In this document: positions 6,551-29,156 of the stretch, one piece after another
Layout: every line of letters begins with the position of its first letter
Numbering within the stretch: position 1 is the first letter of the stretch
Source: a virus
DNA: 64,000 bases
IMG/VR virus record: IMGVR_UViG_3300025104_000001
Span: 1-64,000 of that record
Direction: 5' to 3' (one strand)
Notes under the pieces: generated by a model
Databases searched by the model: none
What the model was told of the DNA's origin: nothing
What the model saw: the letters and a program-made list of their open reading frames with translations, nothing else
Position numbers and translations under genes: made by a program

Positions 6551-7939
6551 TTACATGATGTTCTTGACTGCAGCGATACGGTAGTAACCGTTCTGACGAG
6601 TCCCACCATTGTAGAATGGGTTTGCGACCTTACCATAACGAGTTTTGAAGGCTAGCTTTGGCTGGAAGCTGGCTTGGTCAACTGCACGGTACATTTGTAG
6701 TGGAACGTATGGGCAGTAGAAGTAACCTGCATCGAATGGGCTGTCGCCTTTGTAGCCAACCATGAAGAAGTTAGCTTGTGCATAAGGATCAACATACACC
6801 TTCATACGGCCACCGATGGTACCAACGAAAGTTGACTGGGTCCAATCGGAAGTAACGTTCACTTCTAGAGCGCTTGTTGAAAGGATGTTTGCCATCGCTA
6901 GAGCGGATGCCACGTCTGCGGAAACCACTAGGATGTTGCCTTTACCACGACGAGTGTCAGTGGCGATCTTGTTTGCATCGCGCTCGATCTGGAAGTGTAG
7001 GCCCTTGAAACGTTCTGCTGACCAACGACCATCTGCATCGGCTTGTAGGTCGAACACACCAGGCATTGTGGTATCTTCAACTGCACCTAGCTTAGCCTGA
7101 GCATATAGGGTACGTAGGAATTCCCGGTTGATTTCTGCAAGGATCTCGTTGCTTAGAACGTTTGCCAATTCAGTTTCTGCATCAAGACCATGAACTGCTT
7201 GCATGTCTTGTGCCAATTCAACTGAATACTCAGCCTTCAATGCACGAGTCACTGCAGTAACGCTGATCTTTTCGATTGACACTGCCATTTGAGCAGAAAT
7301 GTCACCTTCGCCTGTTGCAACATCGACGCCGCCGCCGGTGTTTGCCGCGAACGCGAGGTTCACTGCAGTAGCGGTAGCAGTAGCGTTTGCGCTTAGTTCA
7401 AAGGTTGTACCGTTGGTGATAGATGCCACTGTTGCGCCATCTGGAACACCCGCACCGTAAACCAACATACCAACACGTAGGTCGGAAGTGTCAGCCACGG
7501 TAACCGTTGCATCGCCAGCGGTTGTAGCAGCAGCCTTAACGCCTGCAAACATACCTTCGCTGTGAGTGCCTTGACCTGAGAAGTTGGTCAATGCTTCATT
7601 GAACAGTGCTTCTGGGCCTGATTGGTTGTTGTAACGGCTACGTAGAGCGAACACCAAACCAGTAGGCATTGACATTGGCTGAACACCGGCAATGTCGAAA
7701 GCGATCATTGATGGCATTGCACGGCGTACTAGACCGATTAGGACTGGATCCCACTTTGACACACCGCCGGTCACGTTGGTTGGGGTTGCCTCATGTAGGT
7801 GCTTGTTGTTCTCTTGGTTCTCTAGTAGAACAGCAGTGACGGCTTTACGATAAGGATCGCTAATTGGTGCTAGGTCAGCATGTTCCAACACTGGTGCCCA
7901 CTTTTTCACTAGAGCATCTTCTTGAAGAAAATTTTCCAT
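6551..7939 (-). CDS. 23: Major capsid protein gp23
   Basis: 462-residue precursor of the hexameric head shell subunit. T4-type landmarks: an acidic leader, the processing site HLHE/ATPTNVTGG after Glu50, then WDPVLIGLVRRAMP and a C-terminal RQNGYYRIA segment. The gp21 protease should remove residues 1-50. Residues about 143-197 form an extra module (VGMLVYGAGVPDG...) absent from the T4 core fold and shared with the sheath protein of this phage; it is probably exposed on the capsid surface. An exact late promoter is 37 bases upstream of the ATG and a strong terminator follows, matching its role as the most abundant product. Confidence 0.98.
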   Translation of the reverse strand: MENFLQEDALVKKWAPVLEHADLAPISDPYRKAVTAVLLENQENNKHLHEATPTNVTGGVSKWDPVLIGLVRRAMPSMIAFDIAGVQPMSMPTGLVFALRSRYNNQSGPEALFNEALTNFSGQGTHSEGMFAGVKAAATTAGDATVTVADTSDLRVGMLVYGAGVPDGATVASITNGTTFELSANATATATAVNLAFAANTGGGVDVATGEGDISAQMAVSIEKISVTAVTRALKAEYSVELAQDMQAVHGLDAETELANVLSNEILAEINREFLRTLYAQAKLGAVEDTTMPGVFDLQADADGRWSAERFKGLHFQIERDANKIATDTRRGKGNILVVSADVASALAMANILSTSALEVNVTSDWTQSTFVGTIGGRMKVYVDPYAQANFFMVGYKGDSPFDAGYFYCPYVPLQMYRAVDQASFQPKLAFKTRYGKVANPFYNGGTRQNGYYRIAAVKNIM

Positions 7940-12553: not shown

Positions 12554-14464
12554 TTAAGCAATCTCTTCGAAGGCAACACCTGTTGGGGTTGCCACAAAAT
12601 TCAACTGAATAAAGTTGATTGAACGTGCAGGCTTGATGTAGATATCAGCGACAAACCCGTTTGAATCAATAACTTCTGGAGTGTTGTTTGTTGTATCGCA
12701 AACAACTTTGAAGCCCGTTACACCACGGCGTCCTTGAATGTCACGAAGGAATGGCTCAACCATACCAACGAAACGACCACGGGTGAAGGTGTCGTTGAAT
12801 TCAAACATTTGATACTTGGCAGCAGTAGCGATTGCCTTCTCTAGAACGATAAACAAACGGCGCACGTTGATGCGGTCGAATGCACTTGGCTTAGCCTGCA
12901 ATGTCTTGTCACCGAATAGGATAACACCTTCACCAACTTGGCTGGTTACTGGGTTAACGCCATTCACATACAAGGTGTCGCGTTCTGCCTTAGCACCTGG
13001 GTTGTAAGCCAGCTTGATAACGTTCTTGATGAAGCCACGGTTCAAGCCTGCTGGTGAGTACCAAGGATCGGCAACACTGTCAGTGTATGCACACAAACCT
13101 GCAATGTCACCTGATAGTGGAACCCAACGCATCTGGTCATTGTAACGGTCATACATTAGCTTCCAGCCGCTATCTAGAACGGCATATGAGCTTGATGTTA
13201 GTAAATTGCGGAAGTTCAAGATTGCTTGTAGTTCATTCCCCTTATTGTTCACCACAGCATTACGTGGGGGTGAAATCAGTGCAATGCAATCCTTACGAAC
13301 GTTCGCCACGTTTTCGATAACGTAGTTTGAAAGGGCTTGCTGGTCATCTTGGTTGTCTAGACCAGCAACGATCACCAGTGAAACGTCGATTGCCTCTGCC
13401 CTGCTGAACACTTCGTAACCAGCCATGCGCTTGCCAACTGTCACGCCTGTGGTGTTATCAGAAACACCGCCTGTTAGAACCACGCTAACTGGAGCGCTTA
13501 GTGATGAGAAGTTTGAACTTGAATCACCACCCCAGCCTGAAACCTCGTGGGTACCGCCGAACCAAACATACTTGGAATTGCGATTTAGAACATCTGAGTA
13601 GTAAGAAGAAGCGCCTGTATAATCCTTGGCGTCGTAAGCCTTTGATAGACCAACATAACGCTCTAGAACTGTACCAGCAGTGCCTGTCCAAAGACCTAGT
13701 TCGTCAACAACAACCAAGTGCAACTCATCGTTTGAACCACCCTTGGATGCAACGTATGAGCTTGTACCGGGAACACCGGTGTAAGATGTGAAGGTCAACG
13801 CCACATTTGCGCCGGTTGCTGTAGCAGGAGCGGTCAAAGTGATTTTGGTTGCAGAGTCAATTGATAGAATCTTTGCGCCCGAAGGGATGCCAACACCTGT
13901 TACTGACATGCCAACCACTAGGTTGGCTGTGCTTTGTGGAGAAACAAAAGTCACCACATCAGAATTATTGGTGGTAGAAGCGGTCTTATTCAAGGTTACT
14001 GAAGAACCGAACAATGAACGATATTCCCACGTTTCAAAGGTTGCAGAGTCTGCAAATGAAACACGAATTGAATTGCCGAGAGTGCCTGGATATTTGGCGA
14101 TAAACTTCACGCCAGTTAGACCCGAAACCTTTGATTCATAGTCAATGCTGTTTTCGATAACAGGCGCAACAGTGCCACCATTATAAGCGTTTGTGGCTGA
14201 ATTCCCAACCACACGAACAACGCGAAGGTTGTTTGAATATGCCAAGAAAGATGCTGCAGTGAAAAAGTCTGTGGCAGTGTCTGCATCGGGTTCTCCGAAG
14301 ATAGAAACCAAAGTCTTTTCGGAGTCAACGATTGTTGCCTCGTTCACCGGGCCCCATTTGAATACACCAGAGAAAGCCCCGATAGAAGTGGCTACGGCTG
14401 GCACAATCAGTGTAAGGTCGGTTTCCCTTACTTCCACTGACGGAGAAAGACTGAAAATTGCCAT
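12554..14464 (-). CDS. 18: Tail sheath protein gp18
   Basis: 636-residue contractile sheath subunit. N-terminal SPSVEVRETDLT and the C-terminal domain (FNDTFTRGRFVGMVEPFLRD and following) are typical. Residues about 156-226 carry an inserted beta-rich module (LVVGMSVTGVGIPSG) that matches an insertion in this phage's capsid protein. It lies in the region where T4 gp18 has its outward-facing domains, so it is likely surface-exposed. A late-type box lies upstream at 14509. Confidence 0.97.
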   Translation of the reverse strand: MAIFSLSPSVEVRETDLTLIVPAVATSIGAFSGVFKWGPVNEATIVDSEKTLVSIFGEPDADTATDFFTAASFLAYSNNLRVVRVVGNSATNAYNGGTVAPVIENSIDYESKVSGLTGVKFIAKYPGTLGNSIRVSFADSATFETWEYRSLFGSSVTLNKTASTTNNSDVVTFVSPQSTANLVVGMSVTGVGIPSGAKILSIDSATKITLTAPATATGANVALTFTSYTGVPGTSSYVASKGGSNDELHLVVVDELGLWTGTAGTVLERYVGLSKAYDAKDYTGASSYYSDVLNRNSKYVWFGGTHEVSGWGGDSSSNFSSLSAPVSVVLTGGVSDNTTGVTVGKRMAGYEVFSRAEAIDVSLVIVAGLDNQDDQQALSNYVIENVANVRKDCIALISPPRNAVVNNKGNELQAILNFRNLLTSSSYAVLDSGWKLMYDRYNDQMRWVPLSGDIAGLCAYTDSVADPWYSPAGLNRGFIKNVIKLAYNPGAKAERDTLYVNGVNPVTSQVGEGVILFGDKTLQAKPSAFDRINVRRLFIVLEKAIATAAKYQMFEFNDTFTRGRFVGMVEPFLRDIQGRRGVTGFKVVCDTTNNTPEVIDSNGFVADIYIKPARSINFIQLNFVATPTGVAFEEIA

Positions 14465-14747: not shown

Positions 14748-17700
14748 TCAACTCGCAACTGCAATAGCTCTTAGTTCTTTGATTGAAGGTCGTCTGACGC
14801 TATTCCTTCCTTTTAGAACAATTTTGATCTGGAATTCATCAAATTCTGGAATATCGTCAACTCGTCTTTCGTGTTCAGTATATGTCTCATTGTCATATGA
14901 CACCGCAACATTCAAAGGAGCTATCTTAGTCCATGTTTTTGTTTCCAGATCTCTATTTTTTGCTGTTCTGTAATAAACCTCAATATCGTCTGCTTCTAGC
15001 TTGTTTTCGGTTGTGAAGATTCTCAACGAATCAGCAGCAGTCTTCAAACGAATTGTCCGGGTAACGATCTTACTTGCAGCCTTGCCATCTGCCATATTTG
15101 CAGCGTTTTCATTGTCATTTGAAGGTTTGTTCAATGCCAATGATGCAACAACCACAGAGTTCTCACTCAAGCTTAGTACAGGAGCAACATAGTCGTTTGC
15201 TGTTGTAATGGTGGCTTTGATCTGAATGCTCTTAGATGTTTCGTTCTCAGCAGTTTGAACCAAGGCCACTTCTTGCAGCGCATTCGAGTCCTTGTTCTTC
15301 ACTTGTTGTTCTTTAATCTGAACTTTAGGCGTTTGACCGCCATCAAAATCCTTACCAGTAATTAGGTTCGCAAAATAACGAACATTTGACTCTGGTGGAA
15401 CGAACTCATCAGCCAATAGACGATACATGTAATAATTGATGTTGGAATCAATATAGACATAGCGACCCACATCTTCAAAGTAACCTGTCTTGTTTGCAGG
15501 TGTTGTCACTTCAATTTTGTAATGATTGATGTCTACAACTTCCTTGACAACGTGATTGCCGTAGATCTCGCTCATTGGGATGTTGTTGAACGCCGTTGCG
15601 GGGCTTGCTGAATTGCTTGTTGAACCAACTGCGTTCTCTGGTTGAATCTTAACAATGCCATTCACTTCCATGCCATGGTTGTCGTGTCTCACAGTAATGA
15701 AACGACTACCTGATGTTGTATAGAAGTTTGACAATTGAACACGGCGACGTGCTGCACGACCGTCGTTCTCGAAAATCCAATCCGCTGAAACAGAAGTATT
15801 GAACTTGGCTCGGTAAATGCGGAACTTAATGTCTTCCAATTGGAACGGTGTCCATGTTGAAGCGTTCTGAGACTTAAACAATGAACCCAATGATGGTTGT
15901 TCGCCAACAACCCGATCCTCGTTCACAACCTTTTCTCCCAAGCGTGATATCCATACATGATATCTTGAAGACTTACCGAAGACCACGAAACAGAACTCTT
16001 TGCCTGCTGGAATCCAGATTGGCTTGTCGAATACAAAGGCGGTTGCTGCGGTTGAATCATCGGAAACGTTAACTTGGTCTGGACTCAATCCCACTAGAGA
16101 ACCAGGAATTCTCTCATTGACGGGATAACCGTTATACATTTCACGGAGTTCAAGGAACACTGGCGCCACGGGGTCTTTCTTCCAGAAGAATAGTTCAACC
16201 TTGGTAATGAACATGCCAGCGGCTGGTACGTTGCCAGTGAAGAATGATTGTGCCAATGGGTCGTCGCCGCCACCGCCGTCGAAGACTGGTTGAAAGCCTA
16301 GGTTTGTGAAGGTTGTTGTTTGACGGTTCACTGTAGTGACACGGTTCACTGTAGTAACACGATTGATAGTGTTGACCGTGGTGTTTGTAATGTCAATAAC
16401 TTCCTGCATTGTTCTCAATGTGCCGTTTGCGGTGTATGTAGCAGATGCTTCACACTCTACTGCCGCATCGGGGAACTGAAGAACGTTAGTATCGGCGATA
16501 GCGAAAGTCTTTGAGCCAGTTGAGAACCGACCCGGAGGAATTTGGAAGTCACCCATTAGGCGACCCATAGGGTCTGATACCAAAGGATCGCCCCATGCAC
16601 CCGCAACCTGGGTCACAGGGTTAACTGGCCTGCAGAATTCGTTCACATCAACCGCATCAAATGAAGCCCAATAACGAGTGTTTGGCTTGGATGCTTTCAC
16701 TTCAAAACGAACAGTTCTTGAACGCATGAAAGGAATAACACTGGTACCAATCAAACGGGTTGAACGTGCTTCAGTTGAGGTTGTTACTGATGATGTTGTG
16801 GTTGTAGTGTCGGATCCAACATCACGAGTTGATTGGCCCACAATCACTGTCTCTGGAGCAGGTGCTGACCATCCGAAGAAGCCTGAAACCGAACGTGAAG
16901 AATTAACCACGTTAATGGTATTGTTCACCACAGTGCTCTCATTCACGATGGTTCGAGATAGGTTAGTGATGTTTGTAACAGAAGGCGCCCACTCTGTTTC
17001 AATCCAAGTATCATTTGATGGAGTCAAATTCATGCTTGGATTCCATTTGATGATAAGGTATGGGTTGATTGTTTCTGTTGCAGTGGCGAATGGCTGCTGA
17101 ATTTCAACGACTTCGGTGTATGGTAGGAACACCTTGTCGCCCTTGATAACAAAGTTAGATGATCTGGTTTGATTCAAAACGAGATTAATGTTATCTGAAT
17201 ATTCTAGTGGAATGACCTTGTTCTGCTCAGGAACCAAAGTAGCCTGAAATCCACCGTCAAATGGACTGAATACACCAAAGTCTTGGAAGTCGGATACAAA
17301 GAAACCCGACTTGAAGCGATCTAGACCGTTTGCGTCGGTGATCTTCATCTCCTTTGTCTCTAGTTCCTTCAATGTCAATGTTGTGTAGTATTCTAGGTTT
17401 TCGATACGGCGCTCTAGCTTACCAATGTCTCTCATTGTGTAGCGGCGGTTATCATCTTTCTTATACTTGACGAAAGCAGCCTGACGAGTGTAAGCAGGGA
17501 CAATCAATGTCGCCAATGACATTGCATCCACAGGGGTTTCAGGGTAACGAGTGACACCCGGAACACCGTAGATATACCTGATTTCACCGTTCTTGTAGTA
17601 AACGATACGATCCCAACGGTCTACGAAATATGCAGCGTCATAGATGATCGCCTGTCCTGATTGCGGGGCCCAAACGTTTCTTACTTCTGGGAAGAAAGGC

Positions 17701-20318
17701 TCTGCGGCAGACACTGCAGTATTCACGTTAATAACAGCGTAAACTGTGCCAGTGTATGTAGAGTTAGCAGATGCTACAATCTTCTGGGAGTCAATTGATG
17801 TAACTGTCGTGCCCGCAGCAAATCCATTGCAATGAACCCGTGACAATGGAGCAATGACGTTTGAATAATCGTGCTCCAAGAGGATGTTAGGTGAACCGCT
17901 TGTAACTCGGCCACGTAGGATGAAGAATCCATCGCGTGGGGTTTGACGGAAGTCCAAATAGTCTGATAGGATGTAGGTTTTCTCTTTTGTTGAGAATGTT
18001 GGGATACGACCGATATGAGTTGTGTCGTTTTCATCAACAGGATTATCCCTCAATGATGTATATGAGTCAACCGTGAACACTTCACCTGGGCTGTGTAGGA
18101 AATAATCATACACCACAAGCAATTGACCTGATGGAACAGCGAAGCCCGATTTTGCCTTCAATAGGGTGTTCTGATAGAAGTCAAGAGTGTCGTTGTTCAC
18201 CAACTCAAAATATTGACCAATGTCCGTGTCTGAGGTTGTTGCGGGTGTTGAAAGGTTAGCTGAGACATAGACATGTTTCAGCTTGTAGACGTCCTTGTGT
18301 GCCAATGCAATATGACGTGCTGATGGGACAGCGATTGCGGTGCTACCTTCAGCCAAAGTCTTTGTCTTAACAGAAATAGTCTTGTTCAATGTCGCGCTTA
18401 CAGAGAAGATCGCGTTTGGATAAGAGACGTTGTTGATGACAAGACGCTTACCTTCGTTCTCAATATTTACGATGTTTGAGAAGTAGGCGTTGTCAATTGC
18501 TGTATGTGCTGCAACGGGTTGGCCCGTGAAAACACCGTTTCCTAGGTAATCATAAACGCCGTAGCCTGAAGCGTTTGTGGTGATTGTCACGTTGAAGGCA
18601 ACGTCTGTTGACAATTCAAGGTTACCCGAAGCATCCCTTGTTGTTTTGATGTTAGAGATGCTCAAAGGAATCAAATCACCTGCGCCGCCAGGGAAGGTTT
18701 CCTTGAATTCAATTTTTGCCACATAACCTGAAGCTGCACCCTTCACAACCTGGGTTGCGGTGTTGAACACAGGGGCTGATGATGCTTTCTTGACGTAGAG
18801 AATCTTGTTTGCGCCATCCCACGCATAAGGCGCATATCCTGCATGAGATGTTAGTGGCATGCCATCAGTAACGTTGAAGTTTGACACCACGTTGTCTAGA
18901 GTCACCTTCTGCAAAACGGGACCGTTCTTTAGATCATTTAGCTTCCAACCACCTAAATGCTGCCAACCGTATGTCGAGCTTTGTGATAGGAAGAATGAAC
19001 CGAATAGCTTGAAGATCGTCCGACCCGAGATGTTGATTGCTTCCATGTGCTTTGGAATGCAATAGCCTATGATAGGTGCAGTGTTTTCTTGACCCGTCGT
19101 TAGCCAAAGGATTGGGTGACGAGAAATGTCGATGAATTCGTTACCAGGAGCAAGGTAGATGCATTCTCCGTTTTCGTTGACCTGAATAACATTGTTTGAG
19201 AACTTGATAGCGTCTGGGGTGCGGGCCTTGTCTACTTCAAGGTAAAGGCTTGAATGGTTCTCTACTTCAAATCCCTTGATATACGCCTTGCCTTCACTGA
19301 TTTCAATAGCCATTAGGTTGTCATCGCCGCCATCCGCTGCGCTACGGAAACCTGTTGGGTTACGGTCATCTTTCAAATGGTCGATAACCTTGATGTCTAA
19401 GCCGAATACGGCGTAGTCGCCTGATTCATCGTAAGTGCGACGAGCAAGGGTTTCTTCTAGAACGTTGTATTGGGAGTTTGTCTTTGAAACCTTCAACCAG
19501 TTGTTCTCAATACGAACCAGCTCTAGGAAGTCTGTATCTTCATCGTCCAGAGCAAGGGTTGAAAGCTCAAGGTGAATTGACATACGGTCAGCACCGGGAG
19601 CACCTTCATTAGGGGCACCCGTTGCATTGTCAAACAATGAAGGATCATCGTAAGCAGTAACAATCTCTTTCTTGACAATGAAACCCGCCTTGGCATTTAG
19701 GTTAGTATAGTTCCAACCAATCAAAGTAGATTGGGTTTCAGTGTGGACGAAATACCCATCCACATAGAACACACCCGATTCAACAGTCAAAAATGTTGCA
19801 CGACCTGTACTAGGTTCTCCACCTGGTCCTTGAGCAGCAACGGCAATTGAAATTGTAGGTTCGCCTTCAACAGCGATGGTTAGGTCTGATGAAAACACTG
19901 TAACGTTTACCACCTCACCGGCAACGGTCTTTGTGGCTGAATTGGTATATGAAATGATGGCAAGAATTTGACTACCCAGTGCCTGTGTCATCAAAACAGT
20001 GGCTTCTAGGTTGGTAGCACCAACTGTCTGAAGAAGTTTCTTGCCTACCAATTTTGTAAGCAATTCGGGGTCGTTATCCAAGTTGTTCAAGATGACGTAG
20101 GATGCATTGCGGTTCAATTTTGATTGACCAGGGATAACCATTGAACCATTCTTGAACATATGAGAACCCAAGCGAGCAATTTGCTGTTGGAGAATCTCTT
20201 GCATTTGGTTCATTTCTCTTGCCTGAACCGACACGCCAGGCTTGAAAAGGATTTTATGGAAACCCTTTTCCTTAGAGTAGTCATCGAAATATGGCTTTGC
20301 TGAAAAATCTACTGCCAT
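14748..20318 (-). CDS. Giant DUF4815-type structural protein, likely baseplate-associated
   Basis: 1856 residues, intact. The N-terminus (YFDDYSKEKGFHKILFKPG, VQAREMNQMQEILQQQI) is the DUF4815 signature found in virion proteins of marine T4-like phages, where it is thought to serve the baseplate or fibre attachment. Other features: a helical KLERRIENLEYYTTLTLKELE segment, a low-complexity Thr/Asn/Val stretch with repeated NRVTTVNRVTTVN, and a module near 17.73-17.92 kb resembling the insertion in capsid and sheath. The C-terminus is a beta-sandwich-like domain. Placement between sheath and gp8 supports a tail role; the exact position in the virion is inferred. Confidence 0.8.
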   Translation of the reverse strand: MAVDFSAKPYFDDYSKEKGFHKILFKPGVSVQAREMNQMQEILQQQIARLGSHMFKNGSMVIPGQSKLNRNASYVILNNLDNDPELLTKLVGKKLLQTVGATNLEATVLMTQALGSQILAIISYTNSATKTVAGEVVNVTVFSSDLTIAVEGEPTISIAVAAQGPGGEPSTGRATFLTVESGVFYVDGYFVHTETQSTLIGWNYTNLNAKAGFIVKKEIVTAYDDPSLFDNATGAPNEGAPGADRMSIHLELSTLALDDEDTDFLELVRIENNWLKVSKTNSQYNVLEETLARRTYDESGDYAVFGLDIKVIDHLKDDRNPTGFRSAADGGDDNLMAIEISEGKAYIKGFEVENHSSLYLEVDKARTPDAIKFSNNVIQVNENGECIYLAPGNEFIDISRHPILWLTTGQENTAPIIGYCIPKHMEAINISGRTIFKLFGSFFLSQSSTYGWQHLGGWKLNDLKNGPVLQKVTLDNVVSNFNVTDGMPLTSHAGYAPYAWDGANKILYVKKASSAPVFNTATQVVKGAASGYVAKIEFKETFPGGAGDLIPLSISNIKTTRDASGNLELSTDVAFNVTITTNASGYGVYDYLGNGVFTGQPVAAHTAIDNAYFSNIVNIENEGKRLVINNVSYPNAIFSVSATLNKTISVKTKTLAEGSTAIAVPSARHIALAHKDVYKLKHVYVSANLSTPATTSDTDIGQYFELVNNDTLDFYQNTLLKAKSGFAVPSGQLLVVYDYFLHSPGEVFTVDSYTSLRDNPVDENDTTHIGRIPTFSTKEKTYILSDYLDFRQTPRDGFFILRGRVTSGSPNILLEHDYSNVIAPLSRVHCNGFAAGTTVTSIDSQKIVASANSTYTGTVYAVINVNTAVSAAEPFFPEVRNVWAPQSGQAIIYDAAYFVDRWDRIVYYKNGEIRYIYGVPGVTRYPETPVDAMSLATLIVPAYTRQAAFVKYKKDDNRRYTMRDIGKLERRIENLEYYTTLTLKELETKEMKITDANGLDRFKSGFFVSDFQDFGVFSPFDGGFQATLVPEQNKVIPLEYSDNINLVLNQTRSSNFVIKGDKVFLPYTEVVEIQQPFATATETINPYLIIKWNPSMNLTPSNDTWIETEWAPSVTNITNLSRTIVNESTVVNNTINVVNSSRSVSGFFGWSAPAPETVIVGQSTRDVGSDTTTTTSSVTTSTEARSTRLIGTSVIPFMRSRTVRFEVKASKPNTRYWASFDAVDVNEFCRPVNPVTQVAGAWGDPLVSDPMGRLMGDFQIPPGRFSTGSKTFAIADTNVLQFPDAAVECEASATYTANGTLRTMQEVIDITNTTVNTINRVTTVNRVTTVNRQTTTFTNLGFQPVFDGGGGDDPLAQSFFTGNVPAAGMFITKVELFFWKKDPVAPVFLELREMYNGYPVNERIPGSLVGLSPDQVNVSDDSTAATAFVFDKPIWIPAGKEFCFVVFGKSSRYHVWISRLGEKVVNEDRVVGEQPSLGSLFKSQNASTWTPFQLEDIKFRIYRAKFNTSVSADWIFENDGRAARRRVQLSNFYTTSGSRFITVRHDNHGMEVNGIVKIQPENAVGSTSNSASPATAFNNIPMSEIYGNHVVKEVVDINHYKIEVTTPANKTGYFEDVGRYVYIDSNINYYMYRLLADEFVPPESNVRYFANLITGKDFDGGQTPKVQIKEQQVKNKDSNALQEVALVQTAENETSKSIQIKATITTANDYVAPVLSLSENSVVVASLALNKPSNDNENAANMADGKAASKIVTRTIRLKTAADSLRIFTTENKLEADDIEVYYRTAKNRDLETKTWTKIAPLNVAVSYDNETYTEHERRVDDIPEFDEFQIKIVLKGRNSVRRPSIKELRAIAVAS

Positions 20319-20363: not shown

Positions 20364-21635
20364 TCAGAAACTGAAAATTGGTCTTGCTTCCACATTGTCC
20401 GCAATCGACTTCGTTCTCGGATCGAAATATGCCTTGAATATCACGGACCCGCTAATCTTAAATGTCTCATTCGTCACTGTTGATACAGTCCCCGTTGCTG
20501 AACTTGTCTCACCTGTCACTACTCCTGAAGGAACACCATCAAGGCCTGTTAGGTAAAGAGTATCTGCTTCAATGTAAGTGATATATCCGTATCCACCAGA
20601 GAACGTTACCCTTTCGCCTACTACAAATGATCCGCTTACACCCGTCAGCACAACTGTAGAAGTGTTTGCATATCTATAATCGGTTGCGAAAGAATTGTTC
20701 ATCAATTGGGGGTCAGCAACCAACAGAAGTTTTCTAAAGGTCAAATCGCCTTTGATGAGACCACCTTCGTTGCCTTCAATTGTACAGGTTGCCATTACAT
20801 GTGAAGCATAGAGCTCTTCGGCAGGATTGTAACCGTGGCCGAATACGGGAGATAGCACGGCTGTTGCAAATGCACCTGTTCCAGGAACTGCTTGGGGGTC
20901 GGTGATGATAACATTTGCCCAAGTGTAACCTCGGCCTTTATTAGTTACTGAAATCGAAGTGATTGCGCCTGTTGTTGGGTGAATTGTGAGTGATGCTGTT
21001 GCGCCTGTTCCGTCGCCTACAATCGTAACGGTTGTTCCCACGCCATATTTAGAACCACCTTGGACAAGATCAATTCTGTCTATTGTTCCGGGGACAGCCG
21101 CAACCTGTGAAGCATATTGATTTTCGTATCCGACCTCAGATGTGAAGATTTCCTTCACTGGAATCCAATCAGGTGTTAGGAACTTCAATAGGTCGTCACC
21201 GTTAACTGAGAACATATAGCGCCAGACATAACCATCTGCTGTCTGAAAGGGAACGGTATTCACCAGGTTGGGTTCAACTGTAGAAACCGCACCGTTATTG
21301 TTTGAAATGCACTTGTAGACGTGATTGGAACTTGTCAAACAGTAGAAGTCTTTATTCGCAATGAGAGGGTCTCGGTCATTCCATTGGGTGAAAACCTTTT
21401 CTTCCCAATTGACTCTACGAATCACCAAAGAGAAGTTTGACTCAAGAACCTTTTTAGCGAACACCGTCTCATTGAAGTCATTTACAAGGTTGTATGCTGA
21501 CTCTTGAATACCCGTAGGCGCAAGATCAGGAGAACCCCAACTGAAGGTCCTACCTAGAAATGCATAAATGCGTCTGTCTAAGCAATACTGAAGAAAATTT
21601 CTTGCTGAGATAAGAGATAGTTTGTAATTTTTCAT
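20364..21635 (-). CDS. 8: Baseplate wedge protein gp8
   Basis: 423-residue wedge component (T4 gp8 has 334). Shared landmarks are DGYVWRYMFSV, the FRKLLLVADPQL segment and the C-terminal ARPIFSF. The extra length comes from inserted beta repeats: one with GVGTTVTIVGDGTGATA / NKGRGYTW and one with SFVVGERVTFSGG / VVTGETSSATG. Such inserts are common in wedge proteins of cyanophage-like T4 relatives and may bind fibres. A late-type box and two tandem hairpins lie upstream. Confidence 0.88.
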   Translation of the reverse strand: MKNYKLSLISARNFLQYCLDRRIYAFLGRTFSWGSPDLAPTGIQESAYNLVNDFNETVFAKKVLESNFSLVIRRVNWEEKVFTQWNDRDPLIANKDFYCLTSSNHVYKCISNNNGAVSTVEPNLVNTVPFQTADGYVWRYMFSVNGDDLLKFLTPDWIPVKEIFTSEVGYENQYASQVAAVPGTIDRIDLVQGGSKYGVGTTVTIVGDGTGATASLTIHPTTGAITSISVTNKGRGYTWANVIITDPQAVPGTGAFATAVLSPVFGHGYNPAEELYASHVMATCTIEGNEGGLIKGDLTFRKLLLVADPQLMNNSFATDYRYANTSTVVLTGVSGSFVVGERVTFSGGYGYITYIEADTLYLTGLDGVPSGVVTGETSSATGTVSTVTNETFKISGSVIFKAYFDPRTKSIADNVEARPIFSF

Positions 21636-25360: not shown

Positions 25361-26055
25361 TCACTCACGAATAGCGGCCTCCTGCTGCTCCAGCCTCTTG
25401 AACTCGATCACCCATACCCAAGGGTTGGCGACCCAGCTTTCGGGGCCGTTGATCATCTCCCAGGCTTCTCGGAAGGCGTGCCAAGGTGCGTTGTGTCGCG
25501 TGTATCGCTCGGGCGCAAACCACCCAAACTCATCAAAAAACACGGCTTCACCGTCGCCGAAGGCGTGCCATTTGCCGTCCACTCGCCGCACACCCTCCGC
25601 TACAGCGTCCGCCTCGCTGATGTCCTGCAACCGCTCCACACGCACGCCGGTCACTTCGAGGGTGATGCGCGACAGTCTGCGAGGCATGTGGATGCTTGGC
25701 GACCAGCGCCCACCACTCGGATCGTCTGCATCGGCCCGATACACCGTCTTGGCGGGTCGGCAAGGAATGCTGACGCTCGCCTCCCAGCAGTAGTCGGCTG
25801 GCTCGTGGATGAACGCCTCCCTCACCCACAGCCTGTCTCCGGGCCGCCCGTAGGGGGCAGCGGTCTCCAGGACTTCAGGTAAGGGCTTCCGCTTGATAGG
25901 TCGATGAACCGCTGGGCCCACAACCCGTCTCCATCATCGAACCAACCGATGCAGTCTGCTGAATAGCGCTTCACAACCCGCCTCGTTTGGGTCTTGGCGC
26001 CCGCCAGAATCACCCGGACCATCGGCGCGCTGAAGAGGATGGGACGCTCTTTCAT
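25361..26055 (-). pseudogene. Lambdoid 'morphogenetic protein'-type gene, frameshifted, in GC-rich island 1
   Basis: The N-terminus [13 protein letters not shown] and [12 protein letters not shown] belong to a widespread temperate-phage family of unknown function. The C-terminal part ([15 protein letters not shown], then FREAWEMINGPESW) continues in another frame. A one-base loss in the C5 run near 25,850 would explain the switch: adding one C joins the frames into a normal protein. Base composition is far richer in GC than the flanking phage DNA. Start ATG 26055 has AAGGAG and overlaps the previous gene. Probably a recently imported, decaying gene. Confidence 0.75.
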
Positions 26056-26297
26056 GCTTGCTCCTTCATCGCCAGGATGGCGGCGGAAATGTTGGTACCC
26101 GGACAACTGTCCGTGTACTGCCCCTCGAACTCGAACGCACACTCCTCAAGCGTGACGTTGCGGACGAGGGCAGCGAACTTCAAGAGTTCCTCCGGAGAAA
26201 TAACAAAATTGCCCTCGTCCCAGTCAGTTGGTGGGCTTGTGAATCCGTCATACCCGCCAGCTTTTCGCGCCATCTCGATGACATCGGTTATCGTCAT
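26052..26297 (-). CDS. Small prophage-type accessory protein (island 1)
   Basis: 81 residues: [11 protein letters not shown] start, then [21 protein letters not shown] and a [16 protein letters not shown] tail. The layout matches short accessory proteins common in temperate phages of GC-rich proteobacteria (FAALVR...AI.ALK). Function unknown. GC-rich, with a good ribosome-binding site (GAGGAG), overlapping by 4 bases with the frameshifted gene downstream. Part of the imported island. Confidence 0.7.
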
Positions 26298-26366
26298 GTC
26301 TTCTGCTCCTCAAGCACACAAAGTACGGCGCTCAGCGTGGAAACCACTTCACATCAAAGCGCAGCT

Positions 26367-27716: not shown

Positions 27717-29156
27717 TTATACCGTCAGCCCATCAATGTCATAACGAGGAGAGCTGATTGTCTTCAGCATCACGCTTTCTGGCGTGATTTCCTCTGCCTT
27801 AAGAACGCTTTGCATGATTGCAGGGCTGAACCCAGTAATCATAGTTGTTCCGTTCTCATCAGACTTAACTTGGATGTTTTGACTACGAGCGTTCACGTTC
27901 CAGAAGATGATGTTAGGACGAACATAACCCGCCCTTTCAAACTTCTCATTGATAGCTTGGTAGTTTGTTACCATCTTCTTCCTACCAGAGCAATCTTCCG
28001 AACTCGTAGCGGCGTTGAATTCCATATCTGAGATGATGATGATGTACTCAGGCATGTCGCTTTGAGGTACATTGTTCTCTACAGCAGAGTTCAACAGCAA
28101 ATCAAATGCTGCTTGAATATCAGTAGAACCTCCCCAAGGCAATTTACGAACATAATCCACTTTTTCCTTGATGGTCTTCTGATCGATGTTTGCCCACTTC
28201 GGAGCAGTCTCAAACGTCATCGCCAAGTTCTTGAAGTGACCTTCTTGACGTTCAGCCAAGTAGATACCCAAGGAGATTGCAACGTCCATGCATGACACTT
28301 TACCAAAACCACCTGCAGGACAGTTCATAGAACCAGAAACGTCAATCATAGGAAGCATCTTGGATGCACCATCCAGATAGTCTGGCAGTTCCTTCCATTG
28401 TGCGTCTGCAACTTCAGCATCGCCGAATTGTGCAGTTCGAATAACATCATAAGGGTACAACGCCGAGGCTTTGGCTTTCACCTTGCCGTTTGCAAGAGCT
28501 TCCTTGTATGCAGAGAACCTCTCTTTAGCGTTACGGGCAAAAGCGTTTGTATAGCGAGCCATTGCAACAGAAGGCACTTGGGAGAAATTGATTTCATCCC
28601 ATTGTTTAGCGCACATCTTAGTCTCAACAGTGTTGGAAGTTTCAACCAACAGCTTACGATATGCTTTAGGGCTCAACTTCATCAAACCACGGATGATGGC
28701 AGCTTCTTTACCTTTGCGAGGCAACCACTTTGCAATCAACCCTGCATTGACAGATTTGGTTTCCATAGCAACCTTAAGTTGTTCAGCCAAGTGGAAACGG
28801 ATTTGGGTTGGGATTGCATCATGACACAACAGAGGAACCAAATCGTCAAAACGACCTAGCTCGGGGATCTTACCGCTCAACATGATTGAAGCGACTGCGC
28901 GCTTATCGTTCTTAGCCAACCAATCCATGATTGTACGGAATACCAAACGTTCGCCTGGGCCGCCACGAGCGTCACGCGCCCATAGCAAGATACGTAGCGC
29001 AGTGACAGGGTCCTCGGCATATGCCAGAATGAACTTCTCTAGTGCGTCGTTAGGATTGTTTCGTGCAGAACCGATAACAGCGAACAAGTCAACGTTACGG
29101 TTTAGGGAAGTTGCCAGAGTCTTTGCTCCATTGGCAGTGAAAGCCACGTTTGACAT
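27717..29156 (-). CDS. DUF2828 / TROVE-vWA-like protein
   Basis: 479 residues. The N-terminal two thirds are helical repeats (ILLWARDARGGPGER, LPRKGKEAAIIRGLMKL) like Ro60/TROVE modules. The C-terminal third is a von Willebrand A domain with the metal-binding MIDAS motif MIDVSGSM near residue 270, then GGSTD and IIIISDMEF. The family (DUF2828) occurs in phages and eukaryotes. Ro-type proteins bind small structured RNAs, so an RNA-related role is possible. No experimental function is known to me. It stands alone with its own GGAG site and flanking gaps. Confidence 0.85.
   Translation of the reverse strand: MSNVAFTANGAKTLATSLNRNVDLFAVIGSARNNPNDALEKFILAYAEDPVTALRILLWARDARGGPGERLVFRTIMDWLAKNDKRAVASIMLSGKIPELGRFDDLVPLLCHDAIPTQIRFHLAEQLKVAMETKSVNAGLIAKWLPRKGKEAAIIRGLMKLSPKAYRKLLVETSNTVETKMCAKQWDEINFSQVPSVAMARYTNAFARNAKERFSAYKEALANGKVKAKASALYPYDVIRTAQFGDAEVADAQWKELPDYLDGASKMLPMIDVSGSMNCPAGGFGKVSCMDVAISLGIYLAERQEGHFKNLAMTFETAPKWANIDQKTIKEKVDYVRKLPWGGSTDIQAAFDLLLNSAVENNVPQSDMPEYIIIISDMEFNAATSSEDCSGRKKMVTNYQAINEKFERAGYVRPNIIFWNVNARSQNIQVKSDENGTTMITGFSPAIMQSVLKAEEITPESVMLKTISSPRYDIDGLTV

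What the first reader, a model, noticed from the sequence alone, without database searches (positions are those of the whole stretch)
7349..7513. Same surface module inserted in capsid and sheath
gp23 residues 143-197 (LRVGMLVYGAGVPDGATVAS) and gp18 residues 156-226 (LVVGMSVTGVGIPSGAKILS) are clearly the same domain, ending TATAxAVNLAF and TATGANVALTF. A weaker third copy is in the DUF4815 protein (17729-17916). One decoration domain has spread over head, sheath and baseplate, possibly by gene conversion, to bind a common ligand such as host glycans.
Basis: seen in the sequence. Interest (0 to 1): 0.75.

Follow-up and report, generated by a model that had tools for sequence, protein, structure and literature searches.

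The report
Mobile decoration domain in phage virion
In this T4-like bacteriophage a small, independently folding domain of about 70 amino acids sits inside the main head protein, the tail-sheath protein and (much diverged) a very large virion protein; the same domain turns up in dozens of otherwise unrelated virion proteins of other tailed phages, so it is a widely travelling decoration module rather than a local gene-conversion event.

Summary
gp23 (7340-7540, minus strand) and gp18 (13781-13993, minus) carry the same ~70-aa domain, about 44% identical, far above shuffles. A 49-row profile finds exactly three copies in the 90.8-kb record; the third is the DUF4815 copy at the stated place (E 1.5e-7), real but highly diverged. 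The modelled module (pLDDT 87) is all beta. Its clear best structural match is the capsid decoration protein of Arthrobacter phage Bridgette (8ECI, Z 10), so "decoration domain" is apt. It has no Pfam family.

Gene conversion is not supported: the two copies share no DNA similarity, fall in different parts of the module tree and have closer relatives in other phages. The module occurs in up to 59 sequence-unrelated carrier groups (capsids, sheaths, tail tubes, nozzle, adaptor, head closure, fibres) and in a few bacterial proteins that look surface-exposed. In gp23 it occupies the site of T4's insertion domain without detectable homology to it; a second gp23 (L259) has it there too. In gp18 it lies in a hypervariable insertion site.

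Best reading: a horizontally mobile in-cis decoration module, a counterpart of phage Ig-like domains. Glycan binding is untested.

The parts
6551..7939 (-). gp23-type major capsid protein (462 aa), carrier of copy 1
   Evidence: PF07068 Gp23 E 5.7e-129; phrog_138; model matches T4 gp23 5vf3_A at Z 22.8
7340..7540 (-). module copy 1, gp23 residues ~134-200, at the site where T4 gp23 has its insertion domain
   Evidence: profile E 3e-25; strands at pLDDT 85-97 in the gp23 model; absent from 29 other full-length gp23, present at the same site in L259 gp23
12554..14464 (-). gp18-type tail sheath protein (636 aa), carrier of copy 2
   Evidence: PF17482, PF04984, PF22671; phrog_23 E 6.8e-129
13781..13993 (-). 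module copy 2, gp18 residues ~158-228, in a hypervariable insertion site
   Evidence: profile E 1e-27; model pLDDT 87, six strands; fold match 8eci_1 Z 10.0; 75% identical in L030 gp18; dN/dS 0.155
14748..20318 (-). DUF4815 protein (1856 aa), carrier of diverged copy 3
   Evidence: PF16075 E 2.2e-60; phrog_358
17730..17915 (-). module copy 3, highly diverged
   Evidence: profile E 1.5e-7; 21.1 bits against 6.8 in 1000 shuffles and 10.5 in reversed ORFs; orthologue in L030 only 10 bits

Best explanation
A small (~70 aa), autonomously folding, six-stranded all-beta module sits inside the gp23, gp18 and DUF4815 proteins of this T4-like phage. It belongs to a promiscuous module family that moves horizontally among virion proteins of tailed phages, and the gp23 and gp18 copies were most likely acquired separately. 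Each copy folds on its own at a permissive, probably outward-facing insertion site and leaves the carrier's core fold intact. The phage thus carries decoration in cis on two abundant virion proteins. Shown here: homology of the copies, the confident predicted fold of the gp23 and gp18 copies, the match to a known capsid decoration protein, insertion at variable sites, purifying selection on the gp18 copy, and a very broad carrier range. Inferred: exposure on the virion surface, and function. Most likely function: weak multivalent contact with cell or particle surfaces (about 0.45), then local subunit-to-subunit stabilisation (about 0.3), then a spacer with no specific ligand (about 0.25).
For: gp23/gp18 homology; module model pLDDT 87 with clear top PDB match 8eci_1, capsid decoration protein of Arthrobacter phage Bridgette, also found by sequence profile and hhalign 95% to its Karkharias orthologue. 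Absent from 29 other gp23 and all but one of the gp18 relatives aligned, so accessory. Found in up to 59 carrier groups unrelated outside the module, including capsid, sheath, tube, nozzle, adaptor, head-closure and fibre families and a few bacterial surface-like proteins. BFVD matches across phage virion proteins. 23 loci carry it in two or more non-homologous proteins. dN/dS 0.155 in the gp18 module.
Against: Surface exposure was not measured, and the gp23 core model is of modest confidence (mean pLDDT 68). No ligand is known or testable here. T4's own insertion domain at the same gp23 site bridges subunits (PMC3185693), so a clamp role is possible. The DUF4815 copy is so diverged that it may no longer act as a module. 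Low dN/dS can come from folding constraint alone, and dS is near saturation.
Confidence: 0.65

Rival explanations
1. Intragenomic spread: the domain was copied from one virion gene to another inside this lineage and kept alike by gene conversion.
For: Three copies in one genome; other contigs also carry the module in several, often neighbouring, genes.
Against: No DNA similarity beyond 18 nt; nearest relatives lie in other phages (L124 65%, L030 75%); p-AU 0.033 for one clade; a split with support 98/93 separates them.
Confidence: 0.07
2. Structural clamp: the module stabilises the shell and sheath by bridging neighbouring subunits, as T4's insertion domain does, and has no external ligand.
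For: Same gp23 site as T4's insertion domain, which bridges molecules within a capsomer (PMC3185693); extra sheath domains may cement the tail (PMC9230969); the 8ECI homologue is a decoration protein.
Against: No detectable homology to the T4 insertion domain. The same module is inserted in proteins of quite different geometry (fibres, tubes, nozzle, bacterial proteins), which argues against one clamp geometry.
Confidence: 0.22
3. Neutral filler: the insertion sites tolerate almost any small folded domain, and the module is there because it transfers well, not because it does anything.
For: Most relatives do without it, and other modules occupy the same gp18 site.
Against: Purifying selection on the gp18 copy (dN/dS 0.155), although folding constraint alone could give this; a second gp23 has it at the same site.
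Confidence: 0.15
4. Convergence: similar Thr/Ala/Ser/Gly-rich composition makes unrelated segments look alike.
For: Composition is biased and the HMMER bias term is large, e.g. 21.5 for the 22.5-bit 8eci_1 match.
Against: Shuffled and reversed controls; confident common strand order in two independent models; composition-independent structural match to 8eci_1 and BFVD matches.
Confidence: 0.02

Closest known systems
Capsid decoration protein of Arthrobacter phage Bridgette (PDB 8ECI chain 1) and orthologues such as Karkharias gp7
   Same: Same fold (Z 10.0, 78 residues, 28% identity) and detectable sequence homology
   Different: Free-standing ~126-aa protein encoded next to the capsid gene; in the window the module is embedded inside gp23, gp18 and the DUF4815 protein
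Promiscuous Ig-like domains of phage virion proteins (Fraser et al. 2006, as reported in PMC7602432 and PMC9230969)
   Same: Accessory domains found across functional classes of virion proteins (head, tail, baseplate, fibre, decoration) and spread horizontally; works like these
   Different: No Ig family matches the module; the best structural matches are not Ig domains
Insertion domain (I-domain) of T4 gp23/gp24
   Same: Same insertion site in gp23
   Different: No sequence relationship: 2.8 bits, hhalign probability 0.3%
PHROG families with the module as a part, e.g. phrog_17105
   Same: Contain the module: phrog_17105 positions 302-366, E 1.1e-10
   Different: Whole-protein families of unknown function; none defines the module as a domain, and Pfam has no model for it
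GSGYTSAPTVTF-type module found in other gp18 and in the window's gp8-like protein
   Same: Occupies the same gp18 insertion site in relatives
   Different: Different sequence family

Membership tests
Bridgette-type capsid decoration protein (8ECI) | common fold and sequence homology | tested here: met
   Z 10.0 against 7.0 for the next chain; Foldseek prob 1.00; profile E 7e-4; hhalign 95%
Bridgette-type capsid decoration protein (8ECI) | separate gene next to the capsid gene, protein added to the shell | tested here: not met
   the copies are internal to gp23, gp18 and the DUF4815 protein; so it works like a decoration protein but is not one
T4 gp23/gp24 insertion domain | insertion at the same site of the capsid fold | tested here: met
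   alignment with T4 gp23 and gp23 relatives
T4 gp23/gp24 insertion domain | sequence homology | tested here: not met
   2.8 bits; hhalign probability 0.3%
Phage Ig-like domains | Ig beta-sandwich fold | tested here: inconclusive
   no Ig domain among the listed matches, but absence from the list does not exclude it
Phage Ig-like domains | match to an Ig-type Pfam model | tested here: not met
   no Pfam family matches the module above its cut-off, and no Ig model at E 1
Phage Ig-like domains | spread over several functional classes of virion protein | tested here: met
   capsid, sheath, tube, nozzle, adaptor, head closure, fibre; this is the sense in which it works like them
Carbohydrate-binding module | binds a carbohydrate ligand | not testable with these tools
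   needs binding assays; no carbohydrate-binding family matched the module

The most novel reading that the evidence does not exclude
A non-Ig, all-beta decoration module family without a Pfam entry is a second widespread currency of virion surface modules in tailed phages, exchanged among phages and bacterial surface proteins; phages that carry it on head, sheath and other parts at once present one uniform surface to a common ligand.
Probability: 0.25. Interest if true: 0.7.

Novelty: new variant of a known kind. Interest (0 to 1): 0.52.

Why it matters
Promiscuous virion domains are known mainly as Ig-like folds. This family differs in sequence, has no Pfam model, and links a solved capsid decoration protein to insertions in major capsid, sheath, tube, nozzle and fibre proteins. 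Defining it would annotate stretches of many virion proteins of unknown function. It would also make testable the question of why phages spread the same accessory domain over unrelated virion parts, since one removable module occurs in different positions.

Tried and rejected
Pairwise comparison could not decide the DUF4815 copy; only the family profile did. tblastn of the module against phage records gave few or no hits; BLAST's low-complexity filter probably masks it, since the Bridgette segment itself matched only over half its length, so those counts say nothing about rarity. The DUF4815 neighbourhood had no tblastn match in phage records, so whether its copy is an insertion or an original part stays open. 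The alignment profiles could not seed a genome-contig scan; a consensus query of my own making was used instead and gave six bacterial loci. The two-row AU test (p 0.013) is unfair because it splits gp18 from L030; the three-row test (p 0.033) is the one quoted, and it is mild. Whether the gp23 modules of the window and L259 come from a common ancestor could not be resolved. The count of 59 carrier groups is an upper bound, since fragments of one protein can form separate groups. A search for the paper behind 8ECI in the open library failed.

Full report
Where it is. The window is part of a 90,767-base IMG/VR virus record. Its structural genes are T4-like: gp23 at 6551-7939 minus (PF07068, E 6e-129), gp18 at 12554-14464 minus, a 1856-aa DUF4815 protein at 14748-20318 minus, and a gp8-like baseplate protein at 20364-21635 minus. 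A second IMG/VR record (3300010288_000001) is 99.98% identical over this stretch, both modules included.

Noticed in passing
window 20856-21113 (minus), gp8-like protein aa ~175-260: A second, different module of the GSGYTSAPTVTF type, shared by many virion protein families (phrog_460, 2885, 708, 701). In relatives a module of this type lies in the gp18 insertion stretch where the window has the decoration module (L031, L052-L054, L058, L059).
   Followed up: partly
window ~25361-26300: GC-rich island (GC 0.63 at 25500-25999 against about 0.44 around it) with a 186-aa ORF on the minus strand that looks like a prophage-type protein; possible recent import.
   Followed up: partly
window 27717-29156 (minus): 479-aa protein that looks like a TROVE/vWA-type protein by eye; unusual in a T4-like phage.
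   Followed up: no
L152 4083-10166, L149 3924-5885, L151 3018-10169: The module occurs in bacterial proteins that look surface-exposed or secreted: an autotransporter-like protein of Loktanella and large proteins of Verrucomicrobiota-type genomes, two to three copies each.
   Followed up: partly
L118, L180, L091, L094, L196, L168, L204: Other phage contigs in which two or three non-homologous ORFs, often neighbours, each carry the module.
   Followed up: partly
L259 4046-5512: A second gp23 with the module at exactly the same insertion site; the contig is too short to show its gp18.
   Followed up: partly
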